In this document: positions 9,908 to 38,810 of the stretch, piece by piece | Layout of the letters: every line of letters begins with the position of its first letter | How positions within the stretch are numbered: position 1 is the first letter of the stretch | Source: Candidatus Chloroploca sp. Khr17 | Lineage (GTDB): Bacteria; Chloroflexota; Chloroflexia; Chloroflexales; Chloroflexaceae | Reading direction: 5' to 3' | Assembly (NCBI RefSeq): GCF_004138165.1 | Contig: NZ_RYFF01000048.1 | Coordinates: forward strand, 1-38,810 | Length of the DNA: 38,810 bases | Position numbers and translations under genes: made by a program | The notes under the pieces: model-generated | Database searches by the model: none | What the model was told of the DNA's origin: nothing | Seen by the model: only the letters and a program-made list of their open reading frames with translations

Positions 9908-10615
9908 GACAGCCTCTGCTTTCACGGGCCGCCCGGTCAGCCCCATGCCAACGCCGCGACCACGCATCACATATCTTTCATCCTCTCAGTACCCATCTTT
10001 CCCGTTTGACTCTTGGCTTTTAGCGCATAGTTGCGGGATCACCACCAAGGTAACTCCTAGCCACCCACGGTCGTGGCCTGGCACCATCCATCCCGCACGC
10101 CCTGCCCCCACCACGTCCGTAGCCCGGTGGGTGCGCCAGGAAAACCTCGCCCCCACCCTGACGCAACGCCTCGGCAGGCAACGAATGATCATCGCGACCA
10201 CGGCCACGCGCCGCTAACCCGGGGCCACCGTCAGCGTAGGCGACGCCGAGCACCGTCATCAGCGCAGGCGTTAGACCAACCCGCTGATGATCGCCTACCT
10301 ACCCCACCCACCGCACGCGCCACCGGGGAGGGGCTGGATGACGCTGCGTGCGGAAGTGCACGGTCGCTCGCCTACCCCTGCACCGCGTCCTGATGCGAGA
10401 CAACGCCTCGCTGGGCTGCGCGAGCCGCAGCGTTGGCCCCTGCGTGGTACCCCTGCGTCACGGGCGCAGGAGCTGGCGTTGGGGCCAACGCCGGGGTTGC
10501 AGGGCTCGACGTTGGGGTTGCGTACGAGGTTGACGCTGAGGCTGACGCTGCCCTTGAGGCGGAGCGTTGCACGGATCGCTGTCTCCGCATTGCCACCCCC
10601 ACCCCCACCGTGCCG
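9908..10615. other. Intergenic region between giant gene and conjugation operon
   Basis: It holds the second copy of repeat B (10304-10547). The 5' flank of the giant gene (9908-10300) has no clear -35/-10 pair that I can defend. No gene is supported; open frames are short and unlike proteins. Confidence 0.55.
10304..10547. repeat. 244-bp direct repeat B, right copy
   Basis: Same-orientation copy of 2577-2820, identical in length, sharing GGGGAGGGGCTGGATGACGC, CTGGGCTGCGCGAGCCGCAG and GACGTTGGGGTTGCGTACGA. It ends about 70 bp beyond the stop of the coupling-protein gene. Confidence 0.85.
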
Positions 10616-12649
10616 TCAGTATTCAGCGATGTCGCTGCCCCCAGGGTCGGCGGGGCGGGGCAAAGAAGGCGGGGCGGCAAGGCCTGGCGCGGGGGCAGCC
10701 GCTTCGGGCGGTGGGGTGGGCCCACCAGCACGAGGCGGTGGCGGGGCCGGATCAGGGGTCGGCGTGAATGCGGCGTCCGGGGTTGGGTCTGGCACGGCGG
10801 GCGACGAGCGGGGCGGCATCCGGCGGGCCGCAACCGTGCGACAGCGCTGGCGGGTGGCGTCGTCGAGGGCGATGCCGTCGGTGATCAGCGGCGGTGTCAC
10901 CGGAGGCGCGGCGGGCCGAGGGGGGCGCGGTGACCGGCGCGGTGGGCGAACACGACTGACCCGGATGTGTTGCGCTGCGCCCCCCGCAATCACGACACAT
11001 TCCCCCGGTTGCAGCCGTTTGACCATGTCGGGGTGGATCTTCAGGCTGTCCTGAACCGCCAGGCTGCCTTCGCCTAACGCGTACTCTTTGACGCCCCGCC
11101 CCATGCCCCGTTCGGCGACGCTGATCCGCCGCTGAAAGCTGACCTGAAGCCCGGCTCGGGGCAAGAGGCGTTCGGGATCGGCACACTGGTGCAAGATGAC
11201 CCCGCCCGCCGCCCCCAGGATGCGATCGGCGTCACTCCCCATGCCCGCATAGCTCTGTGCTGTGACGATGACCCCCGCCCCCCGGAAGCGTACCATTTCG
11301 AAGAGCGTGGCGGCGTTGGCTCCGCCCACCGCAATCGCCGGGAACTCGTCGATGATCAGCAAGACCCGTTCATCCGGCGGTTTGCGCACCGCAACATAGT
11401 GGGCGAAATCTTCCAGCAGGTAGCGCCCCAGGCTCGCGGTCTGGTCACGCAATTCCAGGCCTTTGAGCAGCAAGTACCCAGCCGCCACGTCCTCAAACGC
11501 CCACCTCCCATCCAGGCCGCCCCGCAGCGCACGAAAGAAGGAGCGGTATCGGTTGGCGGCGGCCTGGGCGTCTTCCTTGCGCAACCCCGTCAACTCCTGG
11601 GCTTCGGGGTGCCCACGGTAGAGGGTGAGCAGGTGCTCAAGCCGGAGGCGGGCGAGCAGTTCCTCGCTCGAGCGCGGCGGCCCGGGGGGGGCATCCACGG
11701 CCAGGCTGAGCAGCAGCTTGGTCATGTCACGATAGTAGGGTTCCGTATAGTCGAGCACGGCTAAGAGCCGGTTGAGGATGGCGGTGCTGTCGCCACGCCA
11801 GCCGTCATAGGTGGTGGTTGGAAAGTGCGCCACATGGGCAATGCCCGCGGTGTGCATCGCCCTCGTGAATTCCGCAGCGGTCGCTTCGTCCCCTTTGCAA
11901 TCGAGATAGAAGACGCGCCAGCCGTACGTGCGGGCCGCCCCATACGCGAGCCGTTTGCTCGTTTCGGTCTTGCCCGTGTTGCTCGCGCCGATCAGCACCA
12001 GGTGGCGGCCCAGATTGGCCGCTGGGTAGGTAAACCAGGCCCCGTGGCTCCAGGCAAGATCGCCACCCAACGGCACGCCGAGCACCAGTGATCCACCGGC
12101 AGCGTCCGGGGCGGTGGCGCACTGGTGCTGCGCCCGTTGCAGCGCTCGCTGATCGCGGGCGGTGTCACGCGCCAGGCGTTCGCGTTCCCGATCTTCCGCC
12201 GTCTTGACGCGCGTGTTCTGGAGATAGAGGGCCAGCAGCGGGGCCAGCAGGAGCATGGTCAACCAGAGGTGCATCACGTCGGGCCAACTCTGGTGGAACA
12301 ACGCCGGCAGCGCGGCTGGGGAGGGTGGGGTGATCAGCGAGGGTTGCAGGTAGCCGAGCAAGGGCTGGGTCGTACGCGTCAGACTGGTGAGCGTGGCCTC
12401 CAGATGACGCCAACGGAAGGCGATGACCGCCAGGCCCGCTAGGCCCAGCAGGGCACACCAGCGGGCGCGGCGTTGCGTCCGATCCGCCTGGACGAAGGCC
12501 GCCAAGAGCCCCGCCAGCATGAGCGCCCCGGGGCCAGTCAGGATGAGCAGCAGGGCGAGGCTCACCAGGCGGCTCTGTTGTTCCTGGACGGTCTGCGGGG
12601 CGAGCGGGCGACGGGTTGGCCGGGAGGGCAGTGGCGCCAGGGTACTCAT
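10616..12649 (-). CDS. VirD4/TraG-type conjugative coupling ATPase
   Basis: 677 residues starting MSTLAPLPS. ATG 12649 overlaps the stop of the upstream gene (ATGA), implying translational coupling; the longer in-frame extension lies inside that gene. Hydrophobic segments at ~27-52, ~63-77 and ~125-143 anchor it in the inner membrane. The cytoplasmic ATPase has Walker A GASNTGKT (~220) and Walker B RVLLIIDEFPAI (~428), followed by a conserved VTAQSYAGMGSDADRI stretch typical of TraG/TraD-like AAA proteins. The C-terminal ~100 residues are Pro-rich and probably disordered. Type IV coupling proteins bring the relaxase-DNA complex to the secretion channel. Last gene of the conjugation operon. 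Assignment to the VirD4/TraG superfamily is solid; the exact subfamily is not resolved. Confidence 0.88.
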   Translation of the reverse strand: MSTLAPLPSRPTRRPLAPQTVQEQQSRLVSLALLLILTGPGALMLAGLLAAFVQADRTQRRARWCALLGLAGLAVIAFRWRHLEATLTSLTRTTQPLLGYLQPSLITPPSPAALPALFHQSWPDVMHLWLTMLLLAPLLALYLQNTRVKTAEDRERERLARDTARDQRALQRAQHQCATAPDAAGGSLVLGVPLGGDLAWSHGAWFTYPAANLGRHLVLIGASNTGKTETSKRLAYGAARTYGWRVFYLDCKGDEATAAEFTRAMHTAGIAHVAHFPTTTYDGWRGDSTAILNRLLAVLDYTEPYYRDMTKLLLSLAVDAPPGPPRSSEELLARLRLEHLLTLYRGHPEAQELTGLRKEDAQAAANRYRSFFRALRGGLDGRWAFEDVAAGYLLLKGLELRDQTASLGRYLLEDFAHYVAVRKPPDERVLLIIDEFPAIAVGGANAATLFEMVRFRGAGVIVTAQSYAGMGSDADRILGAAGGVILHQCADPERLLPRAGLQVSFQRRISVAERGMGRGVKEYALGEGSLAVQDSLKIHPDMVKRLQPGECVVIAGGAAQHIRVSRVRPPRRSPRPPRPAAPPVTPPLITDGIALDDATRQRCRTVAARRMPPRSSPAVPDPTPDAAFTPTPDPAPPPPRAGGPTPPPEAAAPAPGLAAPPSLPRPADPGGSDIAEY

Positions 12650-13635
12650 GATGGTGTTGGCTCCCAGAGGTGACTCGGGGCCAGCGTGACCTGCGGTTGC
12701 TCCACAAGACGATCGACGACCTGGTTGGTTGTCCACGCCACGGTGCCGATGCCGAACCAACCCCGGCGAATGGTCGTCGGATGCACATGGGTTTCGGGGA
12801 GAAAGAGATAGTTCGCCGCCGCCTGGTGGTTGACTTTCACCACTTCTTCGGCGATCCGCTGCAGGCGCGTCATGCTCGGAGCCACGACGAGCACGCGGAA
12901 GTGAGCGGTGCCATAGCGTTGCTGCAACAACGGGTGGCCCTGGTAGGCGTCGTAGGCCTGAGCTTTCCGGTACCAGGAACGCAGCGGGCGGGTGCCGCGA
13001 TCGAGTTCGAGCACGAGGCGTTCGCCGTCGAAGAGGCAGGTGGCATCCGGCAAGACCGGCTCGGGGTCGCGTTGGCCGCTGATCGGGACGCGGTCGTAGG
13101 CCTGACGTGCCAACTGATGATCGCCCCGCCAGTGCGTGAGTGTCCGGTGACGATAGGTGGCTTCGGCCCGCAAGGCGGCGTAGCAGACGCCAATCGCGAT
13201 CCGATGCTCAAAGTTTTGCAGCGCTTTGCTGCGATGATCGTCGCACCAGATCTGTTCTGGTTCCAGGGTGCCATATTCGGTCAGGATGGTGGCCCCCAGC
13301 GGGGTCAACGCATAGGCATCGGCGCTCCGCCGCACCCGCACCGTCAAACTATCGGCGATCCGGGCCAACCGGATGATCAAGCCATGCGCTTGCAGCAACC
13401 CCAGCCGGTGATAGAGGTTCGAGCTCGCCTGATACCGATTGACCGTACCGGCCGTCACGGCCGCATGATAGCGGGTGCGCCAACTCGGAAAGTGCAGCCA
13501 TTCAAGCGCCCAGGCGGTCAGATACCGGGCCTCGGCGAGCGAGGCGAGCATCGCGACATCGCGCGGTTGCAACCGCATGCGCGGTAACGCGGCGGCGGAC
13601 GGGGTGGACGGAACGGCGGAAGATGAAGAAGCCAT
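12646..13635 (-). CDS. Replication-relaxation family protein
   Basis: 329 residues from ATG 13635, preceded by an AGGAAAGGG ribosome site; upstream in-frame Met 13704 lacks one. An N-terminal winged-helix-like part (RDVAMLASLAEARYLTAWALEWLHF, then LYHRLGLLQAHGLI) reads as a DNA-binding fold. The C-terminal half (HRIAIGVCYAALR, LFDGERLVLELDRGT, YRTAHFRVLVVAPS-like strands) matches the Replication-relaxation family (PF13814) found on plasmids and conjugative elements. The LELDRGT segment is acidic and could be a catalytic or metal site, by inference only. No classical MOB relaxase with an HUH motif is visible in the window, so this gene is the best local candidate for DNA processing at oriT. 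It overlaps the coupling-protein gene by 4 bp. Confidence 0.75.
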   Translation of the reverse strand: MASSSSAVPSTPSAAALPRMRLQPRDVAMLASLAEARYLTAWALEWLHFPSWRTRYHAAVTAGTVNRYQASSNLYHRLGLLQAHGLIIRLARIADSLTVRVRRSADAYALTPLGATILTEYGTLEPEQIWCDDHRSKALQNFEHRIAIGVCYAALRAEATYRHRTLTHWRGDHQLARQAYDRVPISGQRDPEPVLPDATCLFDGERLVLELDRGTRPLRSWYRKAQAYDAYQGHPLLQQRYGTAHFRVLVVAPSMTRLQRIAEEVVKVNHQAAANYLFLPETHVHPTTIRRGWFGIGTVAWTTNQVVDRLVEQPQVTLAPSHLWEPTPS

Positions 13636-13694
13636 AGACCCTTTCCTGATGAGGTGCGCAGCACCAGCGTGGGCACGCCGTGCGCGTGCAGTTG

Positions 13695-14366
13695 TCACTC
13701 CCACACCTGGGGCGACGCGGCCAGGTCAGCGTCGCCTGCGAGGGCAGAGCCAGGCTGGCCGCCCACCCACGGAGTCAACAAAAGGGGGACCGCACCCGGC
13801 CAGCGGGCCCCCAGCCAGCGTCGCGGGGTCGGTTTGGGCTGACGAGCCAGGCGGGGGCCGAAGAGTCCGCTGCCTGGCAGCACCAACCACCCGGCTGCCC
13901 GTGCGACCTCAGTTGGATCGGGGCCATCGTCCTCAACGGCGAGCAAGGCCCCCACCCGCACCTGGCGCGACCCCGTCCAAGAGACGATCAGCCGGGCCTC
14001 GTCCCAACGGGTCAGTTCAAATGGCCGGGCCGTGCGCCCGGGCCAAAGCACCACAACCCGCTCGGTGGGGCGGGTCGCCAGCCCTTGCGGGGCCGCGACC
14101 AAGCCCAGGTCACTGCCAGGCAATGACCTGGTCAGCACCCGTCGGAAGAGGGCCGAGCGACAGCCGGGACGACAGGCCTGGCGCAAGCAGCCCTCACATC
14201 CTTCCAGCGTCACATACGCCTGCTCCCGTCCCCGGACACGCAGGGTCATGGCCGCGACCGCGCTATAGCGCAGATGCAGCCGTACCGCCGCCTGCCAGGC
14301 GTCCCTATCCAGCACGCACGCCTCCGCCGGCACTTCCAGCCGCCACAAAATCCAGGGATGGATCAT
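13695..14366 (-). CDS. Unrecognised conjugation-operon protein with Cys cluster
   Basis: 223 residues beginning MIHPWILWRLEVPAEAC. ATG 14366 follows GGAGGAGG at some distance; an in-frame extension to 14477 would run into the end of virB4. Residues ~70-90 contain CEGC-x4-C-x3-C, a plausible zinc or Fe-S site. The rest is predicted beta-rich and Arg/Pro-rich toward the C-terminus, without membrane segments. It lies between virB4 and the replication-relaxation gene with a 60-bp gap downstream, so it is co-transcribed with conjugation genes. I do not recognise the family. It might assist DNA processing or couple VirB4 with the DNA-transfer proteins, but that is only guilt by association. Confidence 0.6.
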   Translation of the reverse strand: MIHPWILWRLEVPAEACVLDRDAWQAAVRLHLRYSAVAAMTLRVRGREQAYVTLEGCEGCLRQACRPGCRSALFRRVLTRSLPGSDLGLVAAPQGLATRPTERVVVLWPGRTARPFELTRWDEARLIVSWTGSRQVRVGALLAVEDDGPDPTEVARAAGWLVLPGSGLFGPRLARQPKPTPRRWLGARWPGAVPLLLTPWVGGQPGSALAGDADLAASPQVWE

Positions 14367-14430
14367 GAGCTCGGTTCCTCCTCCCACGGTTGTCGCAGAC
14401 CGGGCGGGCACGCGCCCGTCCCCCAGTGGG

Positions 14431-16791
14431 TCACGACCCCATAAAACTGTGGGCTTCGCGACGATTGAGTTCCACATTCAGCTGATAGACATCATTGCGC
14501 AGCACGGCCAGACATTCACCCGGTTCAGCCCGTGGCAAGAAGGCGAGGTACGCGGGGGGCACGTCGGGCAAGGCTGCGGCCACTTCCTGGGCGGCACTCG
14601 GTTCCAGGTGGAAGAAGATGCGCGCCGCCGCTTGTTCATAGATCTGGCGTCCGGTCTCGGTGCCAAAGAAGGTCGAGGGGTTCTGATCAACCAGCACGAT
14701 CCCGCAGCCATACTTGCGGGCCGTTTTGCTAATCGCGTGCGCCAGGCGTACGACCTCCTCAACCTGGGAGGCATACCCAAACTCATCAATTTCGAGAAAG
14801 ATCTTGCGCTGACGATCGCGTCCAGGCAGGCGCAAATAACGATGGATGGCACCAATCGCCTGGAGGTAGTAAAACGGGCGCAAGAGTTCGGGCACCTGGG
14901 CAAAATCGTAGTAGACCACATCGCGGCGAAAATTCCAATCAATCGTGGTGGCTCCATGAAAAGCGGCCCCTTCGGGGGTGAGCGTGGTGGCGTGGCGATC
15001 TTCCGTGCCGTAGAGCAAATAGCGCAAATCGAGGGCCAGGGCGTGCGCCACCGGGCTAACTTCCGCTTCCAGCATGGTCAACAGATCGCCGAGCAGCGGG
15101 GTGTGCGCAATGGGGGTTTCCGGGGTCACGCCATGGGTTTCATAGAGCGCCTGGATCACGCGGCCCAGCACGCCGCGTTCGCGGACGGAAAAGATGCGCG
15201 GCTGATACGCTTGGCGATGATCGGTCGTCTGGCCGGGTTGACCAAAGAGCAAGGCCAGTTGCCCGACGACATGCAGCACCTGATTAGGCAACCACCCCCC
15301 GTCAGTCTCGGTATCGAAGACAACGTCAAGCAGATTGACCGTATGTTCCAGCCCAACCCGATAACAGACCGCCCCGGCCAGCGCCGCCGCGACCCGCAGA
15401 CCATTGGCAAAGGCGTCAATGCCAATCACCTGCATGCCATGCACGGCCGCCGCGCGTTCCGCCAGGAGGTTGATAAAGACGGTTTTGCCATAGCCCGATT
15501 TGCCGAGCACAATCGTATGCGCGGCTTGTTGCTGCTGAAAAAGATCCATAAAGACCGGTGCACGACGCAGCGCATCAATCCCGAGGAAGATGCCCGTAGT
15601 GGCGGTCGGGCGATGCAACCCGACAATCCCGGCCATGCAGCCGACCGCCTGCGACAATTGCGTGCGTGGCTTCCAGGGTGCTTCGAGATGGGTACGGGGG
15701 AGCGGGCTACACAATTTGAGCACTTCAGCCTGCGCCCCGGCGGCCCGCATCAGGCGCAACGATGAACCCAAGCGGTCACGGGTCTCCGCGACATTGATCT
15801 CGAGGTCGTCGGGGTCGCGGCCACCGACGATGACCGCCAATTGGAGACGATGGAGCGTCTGGTGATGCAGTTCGTGCAGGGCATGGGTGGCATCGGCGGT
15901 GACCCGCTGCGCCCGGGTATCCAGCAGGCGGTGATCGCGTGCGACCAGGTTGGCGGCATTGAAGGCAAGTTCTGCCGTACGCTGCGCCTGACGATGGGTC
16001 ATGGTTTGAATATCAAGGGCCAGGATGACATCGTAGTTCGTGGCAAGCAGGGGATGCAGCGTACTGGCATCCCAGATATCCTGCAGATCATAGGAGTGGA
16101 GCGCCGCCAACCAGGGCTGTCCAGCTTCCAACGGTTCCAGGCGGGTGGCATGTTCACGGTAGGCACAGCCCAGCAACGTAGGCATGACAGGCAGGTGCGT
16201 CACCGGACGGCCAAAAGCGTGGCGTAAGGTTGTGCTGAGCACCGTCGGCGCAACGTCGGGTGGGGGCCATGTCAACAAGAGGTAGGTCGCCGAGCGCACA
16301 TAGGCCTGCTCCATCGTGCGGTAGAACGCCATCATTTCTTGCATCCACGGGAGCCGCCAGAAGACCTGGACGATGGTATCGGCGAGCGTCGCCCAGGCGA
16401 CGAGGGCGTCAGTGACCGGCAAGGGTTCGCCCCGCACGGCGGCCTGCACCAGTGCTTGCATCGCCGGAAACGGTGCCAGGTGGGTCAGCAGCATTGGCAC
16501 CATGGGTTCCGGCAAAGCACGCAGGATCTGGGCAGGGTCATGGGCCTCGGTTCCGTCAACCAGGGCATCAATCGCCCGCAGCAACGGGCCCAGGCCGTGG
16601 GCGAGATAGGCCAGCGGAGCCTGCTCACGCCGCATGCGCTCGGTGGCGGTTTGCAACGAAAAGCCGCGTGAGAGCGCCAGCAGGCGGGCCGGATAGGGAC
16701 GGGCGGCAAACCATGCGCCCACCCGACGTTCAAAGCCCTCCCGGTCAGCCACTTGTTCCAGCGGGAAACTGTGCAATTGAAAGAGATCCAT
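14431..16791 (-). CDS. VirB4/TraE-type conjugation ATPase
   Basis: 786 residues, starting MDLFQLHSFPLEQVADREG with GGAG just upstream of ATG 16791. The N-terminal ~400 residues form the divergent VirB4 domain. The C-terminal RecA-like ATPase carries Walker A GKSGYGKT (~430), Walker B KIFLEIDEFGYAS (~664), and a downstream VLVDQNPSTFFGTETG segment as in VirB4 and TraC. It powers assembly and substrate passage of the conjugative type IV secretion channel at the inner membrane. Length matches the family. It sits 47 bp after the PrgI/VirB3-like gene, the usual neighbour in monoderm-type systems. No missing motif noted. Confidence 0.9.
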   Translation of the reverse strand: MDLFQLHSFPLEQVADREGFERRVGAWFAARPYPARLLALSRGFSLQTATERMRREQAPLAYLAHGLGPLLRAIDALVDGTEAHDPAQILRALPEPMVPMLLTHLAPFPAMQALVQAAVRGEPLPVTDALVAWATLADTIVQVFWRLPWMQEMMAFYRTMEQAYVRSATYLLLTWPPPDVAPTVLSTTLRHAFGRPVTHLPVMPTLLGCAYREHATRLEPLEAGQPWLAALHSYDLQDIWDASTLHPLLATNYDVILALDIQTMTHRQAQRTAELAFNAANLVARDHRLLDTRAQRVTADATHALHELHHQTLHRLQLAVIVGGRDPDDLEINVAETRDRLGSSLRLMRAAGAQAEVLKLCSPLPRTHLEAPWKPRTQLSQAVGCMAGIVGLHRPTATTGIFLGIDALRRAPVFMDLFQQQQAAHTIVLGKSGYGKTVFINLLAERAAAVHGMQVIGIDAFANGLRVAAALAGAVCYRVGLEHTVNLLDVVFDTETDGGWLPNQVLHVVGQLALLFGQPGQTTDHRQAYQPRIFSVRERGVLGRVIQALYETHGVTPETPIAHTPLLGDLLTMLEAEVSPVAHALALDLRYLLYGTEDRHATTLTPEGAAFHGATTIDWNFRRDVVYYDFAQVPELLRPFYYLQAIGAIHRYLRLPGRDRQRKIFLEIDEFGYASQVEEVVRLAHAISKTARKYGCGIVLVDQNPSTFFGTETGRQIYEQAAARIFFHLEPSAAQEVAAALPDVPPAYLAFLPRAEPGECLAVLRNDVYQLNVELNRREAHSFMGS

Positions 16792-16838
16792 AGCTCTCCG
16801 TGCTCATAGCTGACGCCGCTGGCGGCGTCAGCGGCGGG

Positions 16839-17315
16839 TCAATCAGCCGCAGGCTGCGGCTCAGCGAGCGGGTCATCACGCAACGGCGCGGGCGTGAGCG
16901 CGTCAGGCGTGCTCACCTTCGGGACGGGCGGGCGGCGGCGGCGCTGGCGCGGATCGCGCACGATCTGCACCGGCCCATCGACCGCTAGCGGACGTTCACG
17001 GCGTTCACTTTGCACGGTACCGGTAAGCATCTCCGGGGTGATGATCCGGCCATGCATGCGCATGCGCAGCTGCCCGCGTAGCTGCCAGAGGAGGTGTTCA
17101 TAGATTGCCATGCCGCCCACATCGAGGGTCAACGCCAGTCCCAACAGCGCGGCCCCAATGATGAGCGGGGCGCGCACCAGCAGCGGCAAGCCCGCGGAAA
17201 CCACCACACACGGGAGCACCACGAGAATGATGCCCACCAGATGCTCAAACGTGAGCAAGACCGCTACCTTTTCTTTGCGGCGATTATGCAACTCTTCTAA
17301 CATGCGATACGGCAT
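16839..17315 (-). CDS. PrgI/VirB3-like inner-membrane protein
   Basis: 158 residues starting MPYRMLEELHNRRKEKV. ATG 17315 has GGGGAGGAG upstream; the longer frame to 17438 crosses two intergenic hairpins and is rejected. Two adjacent membrane helices (~18-60, FEHLVGIILVVLPCVVVSAG and PLIIGAALLGLALTLDVGG) are followed by a basic cytoplasmic tail with an Arg-rich patch. Size, topology and position directly before virB4 fit PrgI/VirB3-family proteins that work with VirB4. The sequence is divergent, so the family call rests mainly on topology and synteny. Confidence 0.65.
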   Translation of the reverse strand: MPYRMLEELHNRRKEKVAVLLTFEHLVGIILVVLPCVVVSAGLPLLVRAPLIIGAALLGLALTLDVGGMAIYEHLLWQLRGQLRMRMHGRIITPEMLTGTVQSERRERPLAVDGPVQIVRDPRQRRRRPPVPKVSTPDALTPAPLRDDPLAEPQPAAD

Positions 17316-17354
17316 AACGCGCTCCTCCCCATGCTCAGGACACAAGCCAGCCAT

Positions 17355-17405
17355 GTTCCTGACGCCTACCGCCTGCAAACGGGGCAACGGTAGGGCGTCA
17401 GGAAC
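17355..17405 (-). other. Intercistronic hairpin after the pilin gene (1)
   Basis: GTTCCTGACGCCTACCG (17355-17371) pairs with CGGTAGGGCGTCAGGAAC (17388-17405), one bulged base, 16-nt loop. It lies between the stop of the pilin gene and the start of the PrgI-like gene. It is a likely mRNA-stabilising or partial-termination element that would let pilin be made in excess. The function is inferred. Confidence 0.55.
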
Positions 17406-17431
17406 GTCCTGCCACCCCATGGGGGCAGGAC
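17406..17431 (-). other. Intercistronic hairpin after the pilin gene (2)
   Basis: GTCCTGCC (17406-17413) pairs with GGCAGGAC (17424-17431) around a 10-nt loop, immediately adjoining the larger hairpin. It lies 20 bp downstream of the pilin stop codon on the transcribed strand. Confidence 0.5.
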
Positions 17432-17450
17432 GCACCACCCGGCGTGGTAC

Positions 17451-31498: not shown

Positions 31499-31657
31499 TC
31501 AGCGCTCCTCAGCCTCGAAGGGCTGAGCGAAGCGTTGGCGTAGCCGTTGCAGCCATGCGCGCACGGCGGCGCGATCAGCGAGTTCCAACTTTTGATAGAT
31601 CTGTTTCCAATACCGTTCAAGCAACAAACTGCACCTGGATCGGTCGCCCCAGGACAT
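31499..31657 (-). CDS. Possible 52-aa protein overlapping the rep gene end
   Basis: ATG 31657 in a second frame of the replication gene reads MSWGDRSRC..., then LERYWKQIYQKLELADRAAV and RAWLQRLRQRFAQPFEAEER before a stop at 31499. The non-overlapping part is amphipathic and strongly protein-like, and the frame ends inside the terminator-like hairpin. The ribosome site is weak. It could be a small rep-associated protein or the displaced C-terminus of a frameshifted rep protein. Confidence 0.4.
   Translation of the reverse strand: MSWGDRSRCSLLLERYWKQIYQKLELADRAAVRAWLQRLRQRFAQPFEAEER
31503..31534. terminator. Bidirectional hairpin between convergent genes
   Basis: CTCAGCC (31508-31514) pairs with GGCTGAG (31521-31527), extended by CGCT/AGCG outside. 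It lies between the XRE gene (plus, ends 31471) and the rep gene (minus, ends 31617), as expected for a shared terminator. No U-tract. Confidence 0.55.
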
Positions 31658-33236
31658 CACATAAGGCCCGTTGCACGGCTCGCTGGTAGCGGGCTTGCAG
31701 ATGCACCAGATGCTCCGTTGGAGCCTGAATGGTCGCGAGGCCGTCGTCGAGGCCGATCAGCCGTGTCGCCCGTAACCAGGTGTCAAACTCCTGCCGCGAA
31801 CACGCTTCCCGGAGCAGCGCCAGGGTCGCTTGCCACGCTTGCCTTGCCGCAAGCGGGTTCTCCAGCACGGTTTCGTCGTGCCCAACGCTGCCCATCGTTG
31901 CCTGGGCAGGTCGCTGGACGCTCTGGTCATCAGCACCCACCGCAGGATCACCCAAGTCACGGTCGCCCAGGTGCGACCCCGCCGTGCCTTGGCCTGGGGC
32001 GGCGGTTCGCAGCATGGGCTGCTGGGCGGCTCCTGCGCACGGCGCTGGTTCAGCCAGCGCGGAAGGCTCGGTGTTGCCCAACGCATGCCCAGCAAGGGCT
32101 TCTTCAGCGGTCACGCCCTCCGCCGGGTCGTTGGCCGACGCTGCCGGCAGCGTGAGTTGCGCCCGTACCCGGTCAGCGTCATAAGCCCGTGGAGGGGCCT
32201 GCGGCGAGCGGCGGTGCGGTTGATGGGGTGAACCCTGGGGCGCACTGGGGCGCATACGTGCCGCATTCACCCGCTCGCCCCGGCTCCAGCATGCCAGCAC
32301 CAGACCCTCGGGCAGGACGATGTTGGCTCGACTCCGCGCCGCGGCCAGATCCTGCTGCCATGCGGCCAGGGTTGCCGTTGGAAAGCCCTGGAGCGCGGCC
32401 AGCGCCGCCGCACATTCGTTCACGAGCGGATTGTTGGCCCATGCCGTCAGCAGCGCTCGATCAGCCTCAGGAAAGGCTTGCAGCAGCCTTTGGACGAAGC
32501 TGATCCCACCCGGTTCTTCGCTTTGCGTACGCCCATGCTGCTGCTGCATAGATTCATGCTTCCACATGGGGGGGTGTGGGGGGGGATCGATCCGGGATGG
32601 ATCAAACCCCGCTGAGCCAGAGCCGGTCTGAACGTTTGGCGCACGTGGTCGCTCCGCTTCCATGCCCGTCGGGTTCACTGTTGGTTTGAGTGTCGGGGTG
32701 ACCTGTGGCTTGTGCGTGGGGCAGGCTGGTTCAGCGACGTCGTCGGCAAGGCGTTCGCCCTGGTTGGCCTGACTCTGAACGGGGGCCTCGGGGTTGGAGG
32801 AATTTGTCATTGCCTCGTGATGGTTTGGATGGTCAACTCCTGCTTCCGCCAGGGGATCCGTAGGCATCCTGGGATGGACACCAGTTGATGTCACTGGGGC
32901 CGCCGCGTCTGCCGTGTCGTCGAAGGCTGCCCTCACGGCCACTTCCGCGCACAGGATACGACCACGCTCGGGCTTAATCTCTAGGGTGATCAGCCCGCAT
33001 GCCGCGAGTTCTTCCAACAGCCAGCGGGGCCGACTGGCCCCACAGTCGAGCAGCACCATCCAGCCACGCACCCCTCCACGGAGCACGACCTTGCCGTTGG
33101 CATCCATCAGACGGCGGAGCCGCCGCATGGCCCGTTGTTTGGCGGGACTGTTCCGCAGATCAAGCTCAAGCATTGCCTCAAATTCGGTATCCGTGCGTCG
33201 GCGTCCGGTGGTCGTCTGGGCGCAAGATGGGATCAT
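31617..33236 (-). CDS. Plasmid replication protein with DnaA domain-I-like C-terminus
   Basis: 539 residues, ATG 33236 with GGAG 7 nt upstream. The N-terminal ~110 residues (SPAKQRAMRRLRRLMDANGKVVLRGG, RWLLEELAACGLITLEI) look like a winged-helix DNA-binding domain. A long low-complexity linker (~115-460) is Pro/Ala/Gln-rich with a helical island (~240-300). The last ~75 residues (WQATLALLREACSRQEFDTWLRATRLIGLDDG, IQAPTEHLVHLQARY, IQVQFVA) match DnaA domain I, normally N-terminal in DnaA, where it binds helicase and partner proteins. The gene stands beside an iteron array, so I infer an initiator or helicase loader for plasmid replication. No AAA+ domain is present. Confidence 0.72.
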   Translation of the reverse strand: MIPSCAQTTTGRRRTDTEFEAMLELDLRNSPAKQRAMRRLRRLMDANGKVVLRGGVRGWMVLLDCGASRPRWLLEELAACGLITLEIKPERGRILCAEVAVRAAFDDTADAAAPVTSTGVHPRMPTDPLAEAGVDHPNHHEAMTNSSNPEAPVQSQANQGERLADDVAEPACPTHKPQVTPTLKPTVNPTGMEAERPRAPNVQTGSGSAGFDPSRIDPPPHPPMWKHESMQQQHGRTQSEEPGGISFVQRLLQAFPEADRALLTAWANNPLVNECAAALAALQGFPTATLAAWQQDLAAARSRANIVLPEGLVLACWSRGERVNAARMRPSAPQGSPHQPHRRSPQAPPRAYDADRVRAQLTLPAASANDPAEGVTAEEALAGHALGNTEPSALAEPAPCAGAAQQPMLRTAAPGQGTAGSHLGDRDLGDPAVGADDQSVQRPAQATMGSVGHDETVLENPLAARQAWQATLALLREACSRQEFDTWLRATRLIGLDDGLATIQAPTEHLVHLQARYQRAVQRALCDVLGRPIQVQFVA

Positions 33237-33277: not shown

Positions 33278-33312
33278 GTTGGGGTGCTTTTTGGGTACAA
33301 AAACCCCCCAAC
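33278..33312 (-). promoter_or_regulatory. Inverted repeat in the rep leader
   Basis: GTTGGGG (33278-33284) with CCCCAAC (33306-33312), and inner TTTTT/AAAAA (33288-33292 with 33299-33303). It lies about 45 bp upstream of the rep start codon. Possible attenuator, operator or replication-control hairpin. Confidence 0.45.
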
Positions 33313-33315
33313 CTC

Positions 33316-33344
33316 TTGACAGCAGGATCAAGGGCTGCTAGTAT
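33316..33344 (+). promoter_or_regulatory. Consensus promoter pointing away from rep, no gene behind it
   Basis: TTGACA (33316-33321), 17-bp spacer, TAGTAT (33339-33344). It is the best -35 match in the window except for 36960-36965. It fires toward the iterons, so it may make a regulatory RNA or open the origin by transcription. On the other strand the same site offers TATACT toward rep, without a good -35. Confidence 0.6.
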
Positions 33345-33363
33345 ACGGAGCAGAGGCACACGA

Positions 33364-33383
33364 TTGATCGTTGCTACGATCAA
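33364..33383. promoter_or_regulatory. Dyad TTGATCGT-N4-ACGATCAA
   Basis: Perfect 8-bp arms (33364-33371 and 33376-33383) located about 13 bp downstream of the expected start of the plus-strand promoter. Candidate operator for the rep protein or another dimeric regulator. Confidence 0.5.
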
Positions 33384-33677
33384 GCCTCGCGCGAAGAGCG
33401 GGCTCCTGACCATTGGCTTGGCGGCATGGTGGTCTGGGGCTTCGTTTTTTTATGCGCGTCGTTTTGCTTGTGGGCCACTGCTCAGGTGTGCTGTTCCGGG
33501 CCGTGGTGCTGCGCAGGTTTTGCTTACGTCATCGTTCCTTCCTCTTTGGTTGCGGCCGAGGCCATGTCGTGCGAGCGACCCACCTGGCTGTGTGTCCGGG
33601 GCGCTCGGCGGCCCCGTTGGGTGGCCTTCATGTGAGGGGCTGGTTCCCACCGGATTGCTCTCTAGCATAGCGAAATA

Positions 33678-33956
33678 GCTCGACATGTTCAAGAGGATTG
33701 CGTGACATTTTCTGACCAGTTGCGCGACATGCAGAGGCAGTTGCGCGACATGCAAAGCTGTTTCATGTCGAGCAACGGGATAGTTAGCGTCGTGGTGAAG
33801 GTGTTTTATGGCTTTCTGAAGGGCTTTTACGCGCCTCGAAGCGCATGGTTCGTTGCTCGACATGGCGGCTGGTGGGTGTGGCTTGCCAGCAGGTCGCTCA
33901 TGGCCGTCAGGGGACTATTTGCTCGACATGTCCTATGTCGAGCAATGTCGAGCAAC
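33678..33956. repeat. Iteron array, candidate origin of replication
   Basis: The motif GTTGC(G/T)CGACATG recurs: direct copies with the CGACATG core at 33681, 33703 (TGACATT variant), 33725 and 33746, spaced 22, 22 and 21 bp (two helical turns). An inverted copy lies at 33764-33776, direct copies at 33852-33864 and 33918-33930, and two inverted copies 10 bp apart at 33935-33956. Regularly phased repeats near a replication gene are the hallmark of iteron-type oriV. Rep binding is inferred. Confidence 0.72.
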
Positions 33957-33998
33957 CGAACTGAAGCCATGCCTGCGTGGGTGCGGTTGTGTCAGACA

Positions 33999-34020
33999 CC
34001 CAAGCCTAAAAGGGCTTGGG
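33999..34020 (-). ncRNA. Right-end hairpin, probable reRNA (omega-RNA) 3' part
   Basis: CCCAAGCC (33999-34006) and GGCTTGGG (34013-34020) around TAAAAG, starting 8 nt after the tnpB stop on the minus strand. TnpB guide RNAs come from the 3' end of tnpB plus the right end, finishing with a stem like this followed by the guide copied from flanking DNA. GTGTC-A-GACAC (33989-33999) adjoins it. RNA boundaries unknown. Confidence 0.5.
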
Positions 34021-34028
34021 CTTGTGCC

Positions 34029-35114
34029 TCAACCCGAAGGCTGGGCACCATAGGCCGTCTGACAGGCGGCCCGATTGCGGATATTGATCGCGGCATTGAC
34101 ATCGGCAGGAGCCGTATGCCCACACACGACACAACAAAACTCAGCTTGCGAACGGCGATTGGCCTTTTCGCAATGCCCGCACACCGCACAGGTGCGACTG
34201 GTGTTGCGCGGGTCAACCGCAACAACGGGCACACCTGCTCGTTGCGCCTTGTAGCTGATGAACTGCCGCAACTGAGCGAAAGCCCAGTTGCTGTGTCGCG
34301 CTCGCTGCTCCGGCCCTCTAGCCCTCGTCCGCTGGCGAATGTGGGTCAATTCCTCGACCGCAATCGCCCGCTTCGTGCGTTCGGCCTTGGCAACAAGCCG
34401 CTTGCTGATGCGGTGGTTTGTGTCTTTTTGAAACCGTTTCTGTCGGCCCGACAACTGGCGCAGCCGCCGTTTGGCCGACTTTGTGCCGACCGACTGGAGT
34501 GCAGCTCGACGCCGGGTGTACCACTGCCGCTTGCGATCTACGTGCTCGCCTGTGTGCGCCTCACCGTCGCTGTCGGTTGCCAGATTGACGATGCCCAGAT
34601 CGACCCCGAGCACCCCTTCCATCTGCTGCTCATTCGGCTCAGGCACATCGCAGACGGCCAGCAGGTAGAACGCACCCTTATGGTAGACCAGGTCACTCTC
34701 GCCTTTTCGGAACAGCAAGAGGTGCTGCTGATGCTCGCCCAGGCGGTAGGGGACGTGCTGCCGCCCTTCAACCGTCCAGATCGACACCGCTTGCTTGTCG
34801 GTGTACCAGGACAGGTTGCGGTCGTCAAAGGCGATAGCTCCGTGTGGACGAAACGTGCGCTTCACGTTTCGGTCGAGCGTATAGGCATCGGCTACTTTCG
34901 CAATACAGCGAACGAGGATTTGCGCCCCGAGCTGAAACGAGTCCTTGACCTGATGGTAGGAGAGCTTTTGCAAGGGGATACGGCGAAACTCACGCGCCTG
35001 CCACGCAATCAAGCTGATCGCATCACACGCGGCGTTCGCTTCTGCCAGCGTTGCCAGCAGGGCCGCGTGCTGCTCAGGGGTTGGGTTCAGCCGGATTTGT
35101 GCGATAAGTTTCAT
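34029..35114 (-). CDS. tnpB: TnpB RNA-guided nuclease
   Basis: 361 residues from ATG 35114 (MKLIAQIRLNPTPEQHAALLATL), the normal TnpB beginning; the long open frame upstream is left-end DNA. A -10-like sequence lies just upstream on the minus strand (TACAAT). The RuvC-like triad is complete: Asp in GVLGVDLGIVNLATDSDG (~171), Glu in IAVEELTHI (~254) and Asp in ADVNAAINIRNR (~337). The zinc finger is present (CAVCGH-x13-CCVVCGH). TnpB is an ancestor-type relative of Cas12 that cuts DNA matching its reRNA guide next to a TAM and helps IS605 elements persist. All catalytic parts appear intact, so it may be active. No TnpA partner is present. Confidence 0.92.
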   Translation of the reverse strand: MKLIAQIRLNPTPEQHAALLATLAEANAACDAISLIAWQAREFRRIPLQKLSYHQVKDSFQLGAQILVRCIAKVADAYTLDRNVKRTFRPHGAIAFDDRNLSWYTDKQAVSIWTVEGRQHVPYRLGEHQQHLLLFRKGESDLVYHKGAFYLLAVCDVPEPNEQQMEGVLGVDLGIVNLATDSDGEAHTGEHVDRKRQWYTRRRAALQSVGTKSAKRRLRQLSGRQKRFQKDTNHRISKRLVAKAERTKRAIAVEELTHIRQRTRARGPEQRARHSNWAFAQLRQFISYKAQRAGVPVVAVDPRNTSRTCAVCGHCEKANRRSQAEFCCVVCGHTAPADVNAAINIRNRAACQTAYGAQPSG

Positions 35115-35248
35115 ACAGTATGAATTGTAGCACATATAGGCGGCGTGCGCAAGCATTGGGCTAAAGCCGCTCAAGCGGGGGCGTTCCTCCCGGCGCTCAA
35201 GCTGCCGGGCTTCCCGCCCTAAAGGGTAAACCATCGTGACATCCCGTC

Positions 35249-35269
35249 TGTCGCGCAATGTCGCGCAAC
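35249..35269. repeat. Iteron-like copies beyond the tnpB element
   Basis: TGTCGCGCAA occurs twice, 10 bp apart (35249 and 35259), followed by C. It is the reverse complement of the GTTGCGCGACA iteron, and the 10-bp arrangement matches the inverted pair at 33936/33946. Confidence 0.6.
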
Positions 35270-35332
35270 GCCCTCGTAGGGCCGCCGTCCCCGCCGCTCG
35301 TGGCCTTGACCCAATAGTTTGCAAAGAAGCTC

Positions 35333-35403
35333 ACGCGAAGGCGCGAAGGCGCGAAGGGTTAACTCACCTACGCGAAAACCTTTGCGTCTTTGCGCCTTTG
35401 CGT
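35333..35403. repeat. Imperfect palindrome of the GCGAAG/CTTTGCG family
   Basis: Left arm built of GCGAAGG units (35333-35357) pairs imperfectly with the CTTTGCG-rich right arm (35379-35403). Similar CTCTGCG/CCTTGCG runs occur in the 97-bp repeats (29908-30198). Looks like a widespread intergenic repeat family. Confidence 0.5.
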
Positions 35404-35471
35404 CAATACGGGTCAACCTTATGCGCCAAGCTGCCCTTGTGCTCGTGTCGACGGGCGACGGAGCCTTGCCC

Positions 35472-36485
35472 CTACTGCAAGCAATAGCGGGTATTGCGTG
35501 AGCGTCCGATCACCTTGATAAAGCCGTGCTCCATCAAGCCATGCAGATCGCGCAGGATCTGACGTGAACTGATGTCAGCGCCCAGCACGTCCTTCAGGGT
35601 GCCCAGCGTCACTTCACCCTGTTGGCGCATAATCTCGATCATCTCTTTCTGGCGTACATTGAGTTGGGCGTAGATATCCTGCTGGAAGAGGGTTTCGATG
35701 GGCCGCCGCCAGACGCGCGCCACAAAGAAGGCATTGTTAATATCTTCAAACTCAGCCGGGCGCATCTTCGCCTGGGCCAGGGTTGCCACCACCGTATCAA
35801 GCCCCTGGCCCACCCCTTCAATGAAGCCCCGCTCAAAGAGCAGGGCGAAGAGGGCCGGATTACGGCTCCGCTGCACATCTAACAAGCGATCGATGGTGAC
35901 GCCTTCAGGCAGGCCCCCCGGATTGTTCCATTCAATGTGATTATCGAAGACTTTCACGATGGCCTGCGTGTAGAGATCGCGGTAGTCCCGATGCGCAATC
36001 ATATTGACGCTCAATTCGCGGAGCACGACCGGTGGGTATTCATAAATTTCCACGCGCTCATACCCACCTTCAATCGTCATGCCCCGGCGGTTATGGGCTT
36101 TCAGATAGGCCTCAATGCTCGCGATCTGGTCAAACACCGTGCCGCCAATGCTCCGCTCGATATGCATAACTTCAATCGAATTCGGGGTGCTGCCCCGATA
36201 GTGGACAATATTGACCCCCGTGTTGGCAAAGTAGCGTTGCGGTTCGTGCCCAAAGGCGAGGATCCCGGTGGGCGTGGCCAGCAATTCCGCGCCTTCCTTG
36301 ACCATACAACGGCTCCGGATCAGGTACTCGACCGGATCAGGGTCGCCATTGAAGCGGAGTTGTTTCGTCGCACTTGCAATGTGCGCCCGCACCCGTTCCA
36401 TATCCAGGACATCAAGGCTGGTGCCACTGATGGGCAAGCTGTCGATTGTTTGCAGCTGTTGGAGGGTAAGGTTTGGTTCCTTCAT
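35472..36485 (-). CDS. ATP-binding protein (HATPase_c_4 type, COG2865-like), AlbA_2 domain absent
   Basis: 337 residues, starting MKEPNLTLQQLQTIDSLP; its ATG overlaps the stop of the XRE gene (ATGA). Residues ~55-230 match the C-terminal ATPase-like part of COG2865 (often annotated as RecG-like transcriptional regulators): TGILAFGHEPQRYF, RSIGGTVFDQI, LRELSVNMIAHRDYRD, NNPGGLPEGVT, NPALFALLFERGFIEGVGQGL. The last ~70 residues form a winged helix (RQKEMIEIMRQQGEVTLGTLKDVL). The Schlafen/AlbA_2 domain usually found in front is missing; the co-translated XRE protein may supply DNA binding instead. Probable regulator or defence/stress factor; precise function unknown. Confidence 0.75.
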   Translation of the reverse strand: MKEPNLTLQQLQTIDSLPISGTSLDVLDMERVRAHIASATKQLRFNGDPDPVEYLIRSRCMVKEGAELLATPTGILAFGHEPQRYFANTGVNIVHYRGSTPNSIEVMHIERSIGGTVFDQIASIEAYLKAHNRRGMTIEGGYERVEIYEYPPVVLRELSVNMIAHRDYRDLYTQAIVKVFDNHIEWNNPGGLPEGVTIDRLLDVQRSRNPALFALLFERGFIEGVGQGLDTVVATLAQAKMRPAEFEDINNAFFVARVWRRPIETLFQQDIYAQLNVRQKEMIEIMRQQGEVTLGTLKDVLGADISSRQILRDLHGLMEHGFIKVIGRSRNTRYCLQ

Positions 36486-36835
36486 GTCATGCTGGTTCCT
36501 TGCTGGGGTGGCGTCAGCACCGTCGGCTCGTCCTGAAGGAGGTTGCCCATGCTGGTGGTGCTGAGCAGGTTGGCATGCCCTCCTTGGCGCTCAATGCGTT
36601 CAATGAGCTGCGCCGTTTCCTCAGAGCTTGCCAGCAAGGCGGACGGGGAGCGCCCTAAGGCATGCGCCAGGGCAATCAGCCGGGGCAGGCTTAACGAGCG
36701 GCGTCCGGTCTCATAACTCGACAGCGTCGAGTGATCCCAGTTGAGGCGTGCGCCGAGTTCGCGTAACGTCAGGCCAGCCTCGGCGCGGGCATGGGCGAGG
36801 CGCTGTCCAATCAGGTGATCGATCGTTTCAGCCAT
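36482..36835 (-). CDS. XRE-family HTH regulator paired with the ATP-binding protein
   Basis: 117 residues, ATG 36835 with a modest GGCAGG upstream. Residues ~10-65 (RLAHARAEAGLTLRELGARLNWDHSTLSSYETGRRSLSLPRLIALAHALG) are a Cro/C1-type helix-turn-helix. The C-terminal third (ETAQLIERIERQGG) is helical and resembles the tail of the XRE protein at 31172-31471, suggesting shared ancestry. It is expressed from a consensus promoter about 95 bp upstream and overlaps its partner by 4 bp. It likely autoregulates via the TTGACAA/TTGTCAA arms around the promoter. Confidence 0.8.
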   Translation of the reverse strand: MAETIDHLIGQRLAHARAEAGLTLRELGARLNWDHSTLSSYETGRRSLSLPRLIALAHALGRSPSALLASSEETAQLIERIERQGGHANLLSTTSMGNLLQDEPTVLTPPQQGTSMT

Positions 36836-37444: not shown

Positions 37445-38359
37445 CTATGCCTTGCTTCTTGGCTGTTCCGCAAGCCACTTCGTCAGATCGTTGAGCGTGT
37501 CAAACTCCAGCAACGCTTCACTCAAGATCAGTAACTGCTCGGGTGTCAAGGCCAAGACCTCACGCCGAGTACCCTCAGGCAACGGTTCAAGTTTGCGCGT
37601 GAGTTGGCGAAGGAGCAAGTTCTGGCGTTCCTCTTGGCGGCCTTTCAATTCCCATTCCGTGATCAATTCCACCACAGCCTCCTGGATTGGTGTTTGCCAT
37701 GTGGCAACTTCCGCCTCAAACCGACGGGTCTCGTCGCCATTGAGCGGGAGATAGATGCTGACAAAGGCTGCCAGCATCCGACGCTGCGCCGCCGTCATTG
37801 GCACGCCCGCCAGCATCCGCAGACACGCTGCTTTGACTTGCCAACGTTCTTCACGGGCGATCCGCATGCGTGCCATCAACGCAGCCGCCAGCGGATTGGT
37901 GCTGCTCAGATAGACGCGCCAGTCCAACTGGTTCAATTGTATCATGAGGTACTCGAACCGGAGCACCTCATGGTGACCAACTGTGACCTCGTGTCGGTGG
38001 GGGGCTAACCGACGCGGACTCGGATACGAACAGAGCGCAATGGGATAAATGGGCCGGTCGTATCGGTCATAGAACCGGGCAAAGTAGCGAAACATCCGGC
38101 GCGGCAACTGAGCATCGCGCTGAGCTTGATGCTCCAGGTGGATCAGGAAGGTTGCCATCCCCTCACGTCCTTGCGCCTGGACCACCAGGTCAGCGGTGCG
38201 GCGGTCAGGATCGAGCAAGTCCACGAACGACTCGGGCGCGAGCAGGGTCAGTGTGTCGGGATCAAGCAGGGCGAGGATATCGGGGGCAAAGAGGTCGAGA
38301 AACTCGACGAGAAAGGTGCTCAGCAACTGCTTGAAGATGCCATCATGATCGAGCGCCAT
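37445..38359 (-). CDS. Rpn/PDDEXK_2-family protein with DUF4351
   Basis: 304 residues, ATG 38359 with GAGGT upstream. Residues ~5-130 hold the PD-(D/E)XK-like core: HDGIFKQLL near the start, RRTADLVVQAQG (Asp) and ATFLIHLEHQAQ (Glu-x-x-Gln), matching Rpn/YhgA-type nucleases. Membership rests on the IHLEHQ motif and family length. The C-terminal ~50 residues (LLLRQLTRKLEPLPEGTRREVLALTPEQL, LNDLTKWL) are DUF4351. Related proteins promote RecA-independent recombination or act in phage defence by truncated variants. It is a common multi-copy family in Chloroflexota and cyanobacteria. Isolated transcription unit. Confidence 0.85.
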   Translation of the reverse strand: MALDHDGIFKQLLSTFLVEFLDLFAPDILALLDPDTLTLLAPESFVDLLDPDRRTADLVVQAQGREGMATFLIHLEHQAQRDAQLPRRMFRYFARFYDRYDRPIYPIALCSYPSPRRLAPHRHEVTVGHHEVLRFEYLMIQLNQLDWRVYLSSTNPLAAALMARMRIAREERWQVKAACLRMLAGVPMTAAQRRMLAAFVSIYLPLNGDETRRFEAEVATWQTPIQEAVVELITEWELKGRQEERQNLLLRQLTRKLEPLPEGTRREVLALTPEQLLILSEALLEFDTLNDLTKWLAEQPRSKA

Positions 38360-38726: not shown

Positions 38727-38810
38727 AGGTGCGGCGGTCATGCGGTGGTTGGGCAACCATACATCGATCCGTCTGCTATACTAGCGTCAGCACAGTTTCT
38801 TGAGGCTTGT

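What the first reader, a model, noticed from the sequence alone, without database searches (positions are those of the whole stretch)
33678..35269. RNA-guided nuclease gene tnpB inserted in the putative replication origin
Iteron motifs (GTTGC(G/T)CGACATG and its complement) are present left (33678-33956) and right (35249-35269) of an intact tnpB element. If the reRNA guide copies the DNA flanking the right end, TnpB would cut origin regions that lack the element, i.e. competing element-free plasmid copies. That would favour spread of the occupied plasmid and act as an unusual incompatibility or homing device. Iterons and the TnpB triad are seen; the targeting outcome is inference.
Basis: partly seen in the sequence, partly recalled or inferred. 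Interest (0 to 1): 0.8.

Follow-up and report, generated by a model that had tools for sequence, protein, structure and literature searches.

The report
Ordinary TnpB element splitting iteron-like array
A small RNA-guided nuclease element has jumped into a cluster of repeated motifs next to a probable plasmid replication gene in a filamentous green bacterium; its guide matches only the exact site it interrupts, which is the normal self-preservation trick of this element family and not a special anti-origin weapon.

Summary
An intact tnpB sits between two parts of one motif array (9 motifs at 33676-33955, 2 at 35248-35268). 'Candidatus Chloroploca asiatica' carries the same region without the element and with the motifs contiguous, so this is a real insertion.

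The orientation was misread. tnpB is on the minus strand, so the guide-bearing right end is at window position 33990 and the guide comes from the left flank. The window's right side is the target-adjacent-motif (TAM) side (TCAC, 35236-35239). The first 16-20 guide bases lie in a non-repeated spacer and reach no motif.

The guide should match the same replicon without the element, as for any TnpB. It does not match the related C. asiatica site, which lacks the TAM and has diverged. tnpB is under purifying selection (dN/dS 0.11-0.15 against four close homologues) and its reRNA shows covarying pairs.

Most likely an ordinary TnpB-only IS200/IS605-type insertion in a probable plasmid replication region. 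Cutting of empty sites is the role proposed for TnpB (PMC8612924), and TnpB gene drive in plasmids is reported experimentally (PMC11870625, preprint). Origin function and plasmid status remain unproven.

The parts
33990..35235 (-). TnpB-only IS200/IS605-type element, minus strand: left end at 35235, right end at 33990 (ends uncertain by a few bases)
   Evidence: Ends shared, at or near these points, by homologues at unrelated sites; absent from the homologous C. asiatica region
34029..35114 (-). tnpB, 361 aa; RuvC D172/E254/D338 and two CxxC pairs (C309/C312, C328/C331) present
   Evidence: Pfam OrfB_IS605 and Cas12f1-like_TNB; NCBIfam guided_TnpB 176.9 bits, cut-off 100; PDB TnpB/Cas12f relatives; residues picked by eye, positions checked
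33990..34080 (-). 3' part of the reRNA scaffold: three stems and a pseudoknot between a loop and the terminal TCTGACA
   Evidence: 11 of 29 pairs show changes on both sides across 12 homologues; 0 of 500 shuffles reach this
33970..33989 (-). predicted guide region (first 16-20 nt after the right end), unique spacer with no motif
   Evidence: Position; guide length taken from ISDra2 (PMC8612924)
35236..35239 (-). TAM-like TCAC next to the left end (5-nt form GTCAC at 35236-35240; commonest form in homologues TTCAC)
   Evidence: 15 of 16 left ends recognised by the script have TCAY here
33676..33955 (.). left group: 9 copies of TTG(C/T)(G/T)CGACAT-like motif, both orientations
35248..35268 (.). 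right group: tandem pair of the motif, 10-bp spacing, minus orientation
   Evidence: contiguous with the left group in C. asiatica
31617..33236 (-). probable replication initiator, 539 aa, with a DnaA domain-I-like C-terminus
   Evidence: Pfam DnaA_N 28.2 bits, cut-off 24.6; NCBIfam DnaA weak match to residues 468-538, far below its cut-off; 92% identical in C. asiatica
33316..33452 (+). sigma-70-like promoter (33316-33344) and strongly folding possible antisense RNA (33349-33452) upstream of the initiator gene
   Evidence: function inferred only; the terminator scan did not flag its end

Best explanation
A TnpB-only element of the IS200/IS605 superfamily (IS1341-like layout, a label recalled and from no call; without its own TnpA) inserted next to a TCAC target in the spacer of a two-part motif array, in the probable replication region of a plasmid or conjugative element of a Chloroploca species. 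Shown: the insertion, its approximate ends, an intact tnpB under purifying selection, a conserved reRNA fold, a TAM-like motif, and unique spacer where the guide should come from. Inferred: TnpB with this reRNA cuts the re-joined empty site, whether produced by excision or present on an element-free copy of the same replicon. The occupied copy is then copied back or outlives the empty one. The position inside the array is probably incidental: a non-coding gap where insertion was tolerated.
For: Empty site with contiguous motifs in C. asiatica. Element ends defined by homologues at unrelated loci, whose flanks differ outside the ends. TCAY at 15 of 16 recognised left ends. dN/dS 0.11-0.15 between this tnpB and the 4 complete homologues with at least 82% protein identity; 0.19-0.29 for the 13 more distant ones, with saturated dS (1.2-2.2). 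reRNA covariation including the pseudoknot. RuvC and Zn-ribbon residues present. The mechanism was proposed for ISDra2 TnpB with cleavage shown in vitro and in E. coli (PMC8612924, passages) and reported as plasmid gene drive (PMC11870625, part 1 of 5 of the text plus two sections).
Against: The window's TAM begins with G, whereas 13 of the 15 TCAY left ends have T (9) or C (4) there; the other exception has A. It may be a weaker TAM. No element-free copy of this very replicon was found, so the exact empty site is inferred by joining flanks. Three Y1 transposase genes are present in the genome, but none was shown to recognise these ends. No expression data. Some pairs of the proposed reRNA fold fail in half or more of the sequences.
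Confidence: 0.82

Rival explanations
1. The element is a specialised origin-homing or incompatibility device: being in the origin lets TnpB eliminate competing plasmids of the same family.
For: Location inside the motif array beside the probable initiator; guide should match an element-free copy of the same replicon.
Against: The guide avoids the conserved motifs; the related C. asiatica replicon lacks the TAM and the guide match. A guide against the motifs themselves would also threaten the carrier (reasoning). The homologues shown sit next to flanks that look unrelated by eye over about 60 bases.
Confidence: 0.08
2. The motif array is not a replication origin but an operator, a partition (centromere) or a transfer site, with TnpB inserted by chance.
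For: Motifs lie in both orientations; no replication test; replicon not closed; an XRE-type regulator lies nearby.
Against: Array sits beside a protein with a DnaA domain-I-like C-terminus. In C. asiatica a gene with weak primase matches lies between them in the same orientation as the initiator gene. No motif hit near the regulator's start.
Confidence: 0.3
3. The element is a fixed relic whose nuclease is no longer used, or has been turned into an RNA-guided repressor.
For: No partner TnpA shown; the other 4 matches in this genome are at most 55% identical.
Against: RuvC residues and reading frame intact, low dN/dS, conserved reRNA.
Confidence: 0.12

Closest known systems
ISDra2 TnpB and its reRNA (IS200/IS605 family)
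   Same: TnpB with RuvC and Zn ribbon; reRNA from the 3' end of tnpB plus right end; guide from flanking DNA; TAM at the other end
   Different: No tnpA in this element; TAM TCAC instead of TTGAT; distant in sequence (PDB 8bf8 match only 1.1e-6)
[quoted passage not shown]
   Different: Shown with engineered ColE1 and pSC101 plasmids in the laboratory; here only sequence evidence, and an insertion inside a probable origin
Iteron plasmid origins with initiator genes (recalled, from no call)
   Same: Local cluster of a short motif near a probable initiator
   Different: Motifs in both orientations; initiator fold not confirmed; no replication test

Membership tests
TnpB RNA-guided nuclease of IS200/IS605 superfamily | OrfB/TnpB and Cas12f-like C-terminal domains, above curated cut-offs | tested here: met
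TnpB RNA-guided nuclease of IS200/IS605 superfamily | RuvC D-E-D residues and CxxC zinc ribbon | tested here: met
   picked by eye, positions checked; aligned to a solved relative
TnpB RNA-guided nuclease of IS200/IS605 superfamily | structured reRNA at the right end with conserved terminal motif | tested here: met
   more distant homologues end differently
TnpB RNA-guided nuclease of IS200/IS605 superfamily | TAM at the left end | tested here: met
   TCAY at 15 of 16 recognised left ends; 13 of 29 rows (window included) had no recognisable left end and were not counted
TnpB RNA-guided nuclease of IS200/IS605 superfamily | RNA-guided DNA cleavage | not testable with these tools
   needs biochemistry
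Autonomous IS200/IS605 element | own tnpA (Y1 transposase) inside the element | tested here: not met
   3 Y1 matches in the genome, none in this contig
Iteron-controlled plasmid origin | clustered short motif beside the initiator gene | tested here: met
Iteron-controlled plasmid origin | direct (same-orientation) repeats | tested here: not met
   both orientations
Iteron-controlled plasmid origin | initiator protein that binds the motif | tested here: inconclusive
   DnaA_N-like C-terminus only; binding not testable here; structure model of too low confidence (mean pLDDT 39.5)
Plasmid | closed circular replicon | tested here: inconclusive
   no terminal overlap in the window or in the C. asiatica contig; both window ends share 77-base words with other contigs
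Origin-targeting incompatibility device | guide matches origins of related element-free plasmids | tested here: not met
   C. asiatica site lacks TAM and guide match; only one relative available

The most novel reading that the evidence does not exclude
Because tnpB and its reRNA are transcribed towards the array and the initiator gene, with no terminator flagged between them by a simple scan, the element may both cut empty sister replicons and change initiator or origin transcription, coupling a TnpB drive to replication control of its carrier.
Probability: 0.07. Interest if true: 0.6.

Novelty: new member of a known kind. Interest (0 to 1): 0.3.

Why it matters
It is a clear natural case, with an empty relative, of a TnpB element placed in a probable plasmid replication region. 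It could be used to test TnpB drive outside laboratory plasmids. It also suggests a limit of such drives: the guide tracks a changing spacer, so even a same-genus replicon should escape.

Tried and rejected
Guide overlapping the motifs: rejected by distance. Guide targets elsewhere: TCAC plus 16 nt with up to 3 mismatches gave 73 hits in 34 of 41 family genomes against 50 for the pattern read backwards (sums made by hand), so somewhat above the control but none with fewer than 2 mismatches; in this genome 3 hits, all with 3 mismatches, against 2 control hits. Plasmid relatives of the initiator in PLSDB: 1 record, 13% of the protein, 35% identity, uninformative. IMG/VR: none. Rfam: no match at gathering score in the window, none up to E 1 in 33280-33520. 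tRNA genes: 0 in the window. Fold of the initiator: mean pLDDT 39.5, not used for a fold search.

Literature: seven searches ran and one failed. The two key papers came up. The origin/iteron search held 17 papers with at least 4 of 5 terms; of the 12 listed, no title concerns TnpB in an origin, and the other 5 were not seen. I saw of PMC11870625 the outline with abstract, part 1 of 5 of the text, and two sections; of PMC8612924 and PMC6180586 passages only; of all others search listings.

Full report
What is there. The window is the whole contig C161 (38,810 bases) of a 6.4 Mb draft genome. Its closest relative for this region is contig C178 (22,583 bases) of the same-genus genome G002; the stretch compared is identical to the 'Candidatus Chloroploca asiatica' B7-9 contig NZ_LYXE01000179.1, returned by name for the initiator protein. 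So the host is taken to be a Chloroploca species (inference). tnpB lies at 34029-35114 on the minus strand (361 aa). Pfam gives Cas12f1-like_TNB (5.6e-23) and OrfB_IS605 (1e-12); NCBIfam gives guided_TnpB at 176.9 bits against a cut-off of 100. Residues D172, E254, D338 and two CxxC pairs were picked by eye, their positions checked, and they agree with the alignment to a solved Cas12f-like protein.

Element ends. Homologues of 65-91% DNA identity lie at unrelated places in other genomes, and their similarity stops at or near the same points: window 33990 on the reRNA side and 35236-35239 on the TAM side. Not all reach both ends: of the copies, L018 and L030 start 14 bases inside, and L017 and L020 run 5-10 bases past the right end. 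Twelve right ends, placed by eye, finish in GGGTGTCTGACA (3) or variants of it (9); more distant homologues end in other forms such as TTATGAC or CTTAC and were not used for the alignment. At the left end, 40 sources were handed to the script, which kept 29 distinct tnpB rows, the window included; 16 had a left end that the script recognised, and 15 of these have TCAC or TCAT at a similar spacing: TTCAC 7, CTCAC 3, TTCAT 2, and GTCAC (this window), CTCAT and ATCAT once each. The script looked for TCAY anywhere in 25 bases, so a chance match is expected now and then. The 13 rows without a recognised left end were dropped.

Empty site. C. asiatica contig C178 matches the window at 33595-33976 (89%) and again at 35240-35295 (80%) and onward, with the parts side by side and no tnpB. 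A joined-flank alignment shows the motifs running through. In this alignment the window's TCAC faces GCGC and the guide region holds gaps and substitutions, whereas the motif-bearing stretch beside it is nearly identical.

The motifs. TTG[CT][GT]CGACAT with up to one mismatch: 9 in the left group, 2 in the right, 1 elsewhere in the window; Markov expectation 2.1 per window. The strict form TTGCKCGACATG occurs 6 times in the genome, 5 here. C. asiatica has 12 hits in the 20,000 bases scanned, all at 8835-9182, one of them a poor match between the two groups. Both orientations occur, which is unlike classical iterons (recalled).

Is it an origin? The neighbouring 539-aa protein has a C-terminal DnaA_N match (1.6e-6) and a weak DnaA match far below its cut-off. 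It has matches in 40 of 41 family genomes, this one included. Apart from C. asiatica (full length), two partial matches on contig C29 of this genome and one in G016, they cover only that C-terminal domain; in three single-contig genomes the hit lies in the first 650 bases, where dnaA is expected, so most are probably dnaA itself (inference). The protein is 92% identical in C. asiatica, with the first 133 residues identical. In C. asiatica a reading frame with weak primase matches (Pfam DNAG_N 16.9 bits, cut-off 26; NCBIfam dnaG 27.1 bits, cut-off 283.6; PHROG primase 6e-7; start chosen by eye) lies between array and initiator gene, in the same orientation as the latter. The C. asiatica contig has an assembly coverage of 128.7 in its record title against 79.3 for one other contig of the same genome and 86.3x reported for the genome (PMC6180586, passages): compatible with more than one copy per chromosome, but from two contigs only, and that paper's text does not contain the word plasmid. 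Against a firm claim: no terminal overlap in the window or in C178. The window's first 77 bases equal the end of contig C99 and its last 77 bases equal, reversed, the start of contig C136, so both ends look like assembly branch points. A Replic_Relax protein (above cut-off) and a TrwB/VirB4-like ATPase (Pfam TrwB above its cut-off, NCBIfam VirB4 models below theirs) suggest a plasmid or an integrative conjugative element.

The guide. By analogy with ISDra2, where about 16 nt of flanking DNA end the reRNA (PMC8612924), the guide is 33974-33989 or a little longer, minus strand. It lies in a spacer; the nearest motif ends at 33955. TCAC plus 16 nt has no match with 1 mismatch or fewer in 41 genomes of the family. 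With 2 or 3 mismatches there are 73 hits against 50 for the pattern read backwards (summed by hand). The guide therefore seems to address its own empty site only.

Is it functional? dN/dS against the 4 complete homologues of at least 82% protein identity is 0.13 (L068), 0.15 (L069), 0.15 (L070) and 0.11 (L022); for the 13 more distant complete ones it is 0.19-0.29 with saturated dS (ratios). The last 91-104 nt of the reRNA region in 12 homologues, chosen for alignable right ends, support three stems and a pseudoknot between a loop and the terminal TCTGACA: 89.9% of cells paired, 11 pairs with changes on both sides against 4.1 in shuffles, 0 of 500 shuffles as high; sliding the partners by 1 to 3 columns gives 2 to 7 such pairs. 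Against: stem 1 shows no change on both sides and 3 of its 5 pairs fail in 2 or 3 sequences, the outermost pseudoknot pair fails in 6 of 12, and the inner two pairs of stem 4 fail in 8 and 6 of 12. The shuffles do not allow for relatedness. The single-sequence fold of 187 nt has z = -3.2. No tnpA lies in the contig; the genome has three Y1 transposase matches elsewhere, none shown to serve this element.

Verdict. PMC8612924 proposed cutting of the donor joint, and the preprint PMC11870625 reports displacement of insertion-free plasmids by TnpB in E. coli, with its own caveats. The special claim, targeting of origins as an incompatibility system, is not supported by the single relative available. 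It is an interesting natural example, not a new kind of system.

Noticed in passing
33316-33452 (+): TTGACA-17-TAGTAT promoter-like site followed by a strongly folding stretch (z = -4.87) ending in a T run, with 3 differences in 104 bases in C. asiatica, reading away from the initiator gene: a possible antisense RNA of the kind that controls plasmid copy number (no Rfam match).
   Followed up: partly
33571-33595: C. asiatica carries about 1.4 kb with a weakly primase-like gene here that the window lacks; only about 45 bases like the end of that frame are present.
   Followed up: partly
1-77 and 38734-38810: Both window ends are 77-base words shared with other contigs (C99 end, C136 start), so the replicon is not closed. 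C99 holds a reading frame that looks like a single-stranded-DNA-binding protein by eye (no family search made).
   Followed up: partly
3305-9970 (-): 2221-aa protein with RCC1 repeats, CARDB and carboxypeptidase-regulatory-like domains.
   Followed up: no
10616-17438 (-): Replic_Relax and TrwB/VirB4-like ATPase genes, a possible conjugation module; two of the ATPases also match PADLOC mad8.
   Followed up: no
35472-36835 (-): XRE-type regulator followed by a protein with a RecG C-terminal-like domain; the latter also matches PADLOC Argonaute-associated models.
   Followed up: no
35304-35420: Dispersed repeat (CTTTGCGTC/GCGAAGGCG type) with matches in several genomes of the order, also beside the G001 copy of the element.
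   Followed up: no
37445-38359 (-): DUF4351/Transposase_31 gene with several 81-88% identical DNA matches in this and the two same-genus genomes.
   Followed up: no
L079/L093 (G007:C201): Homologous tnpB copy split into two overlapping frames, probably decayed.
   Followed up: no
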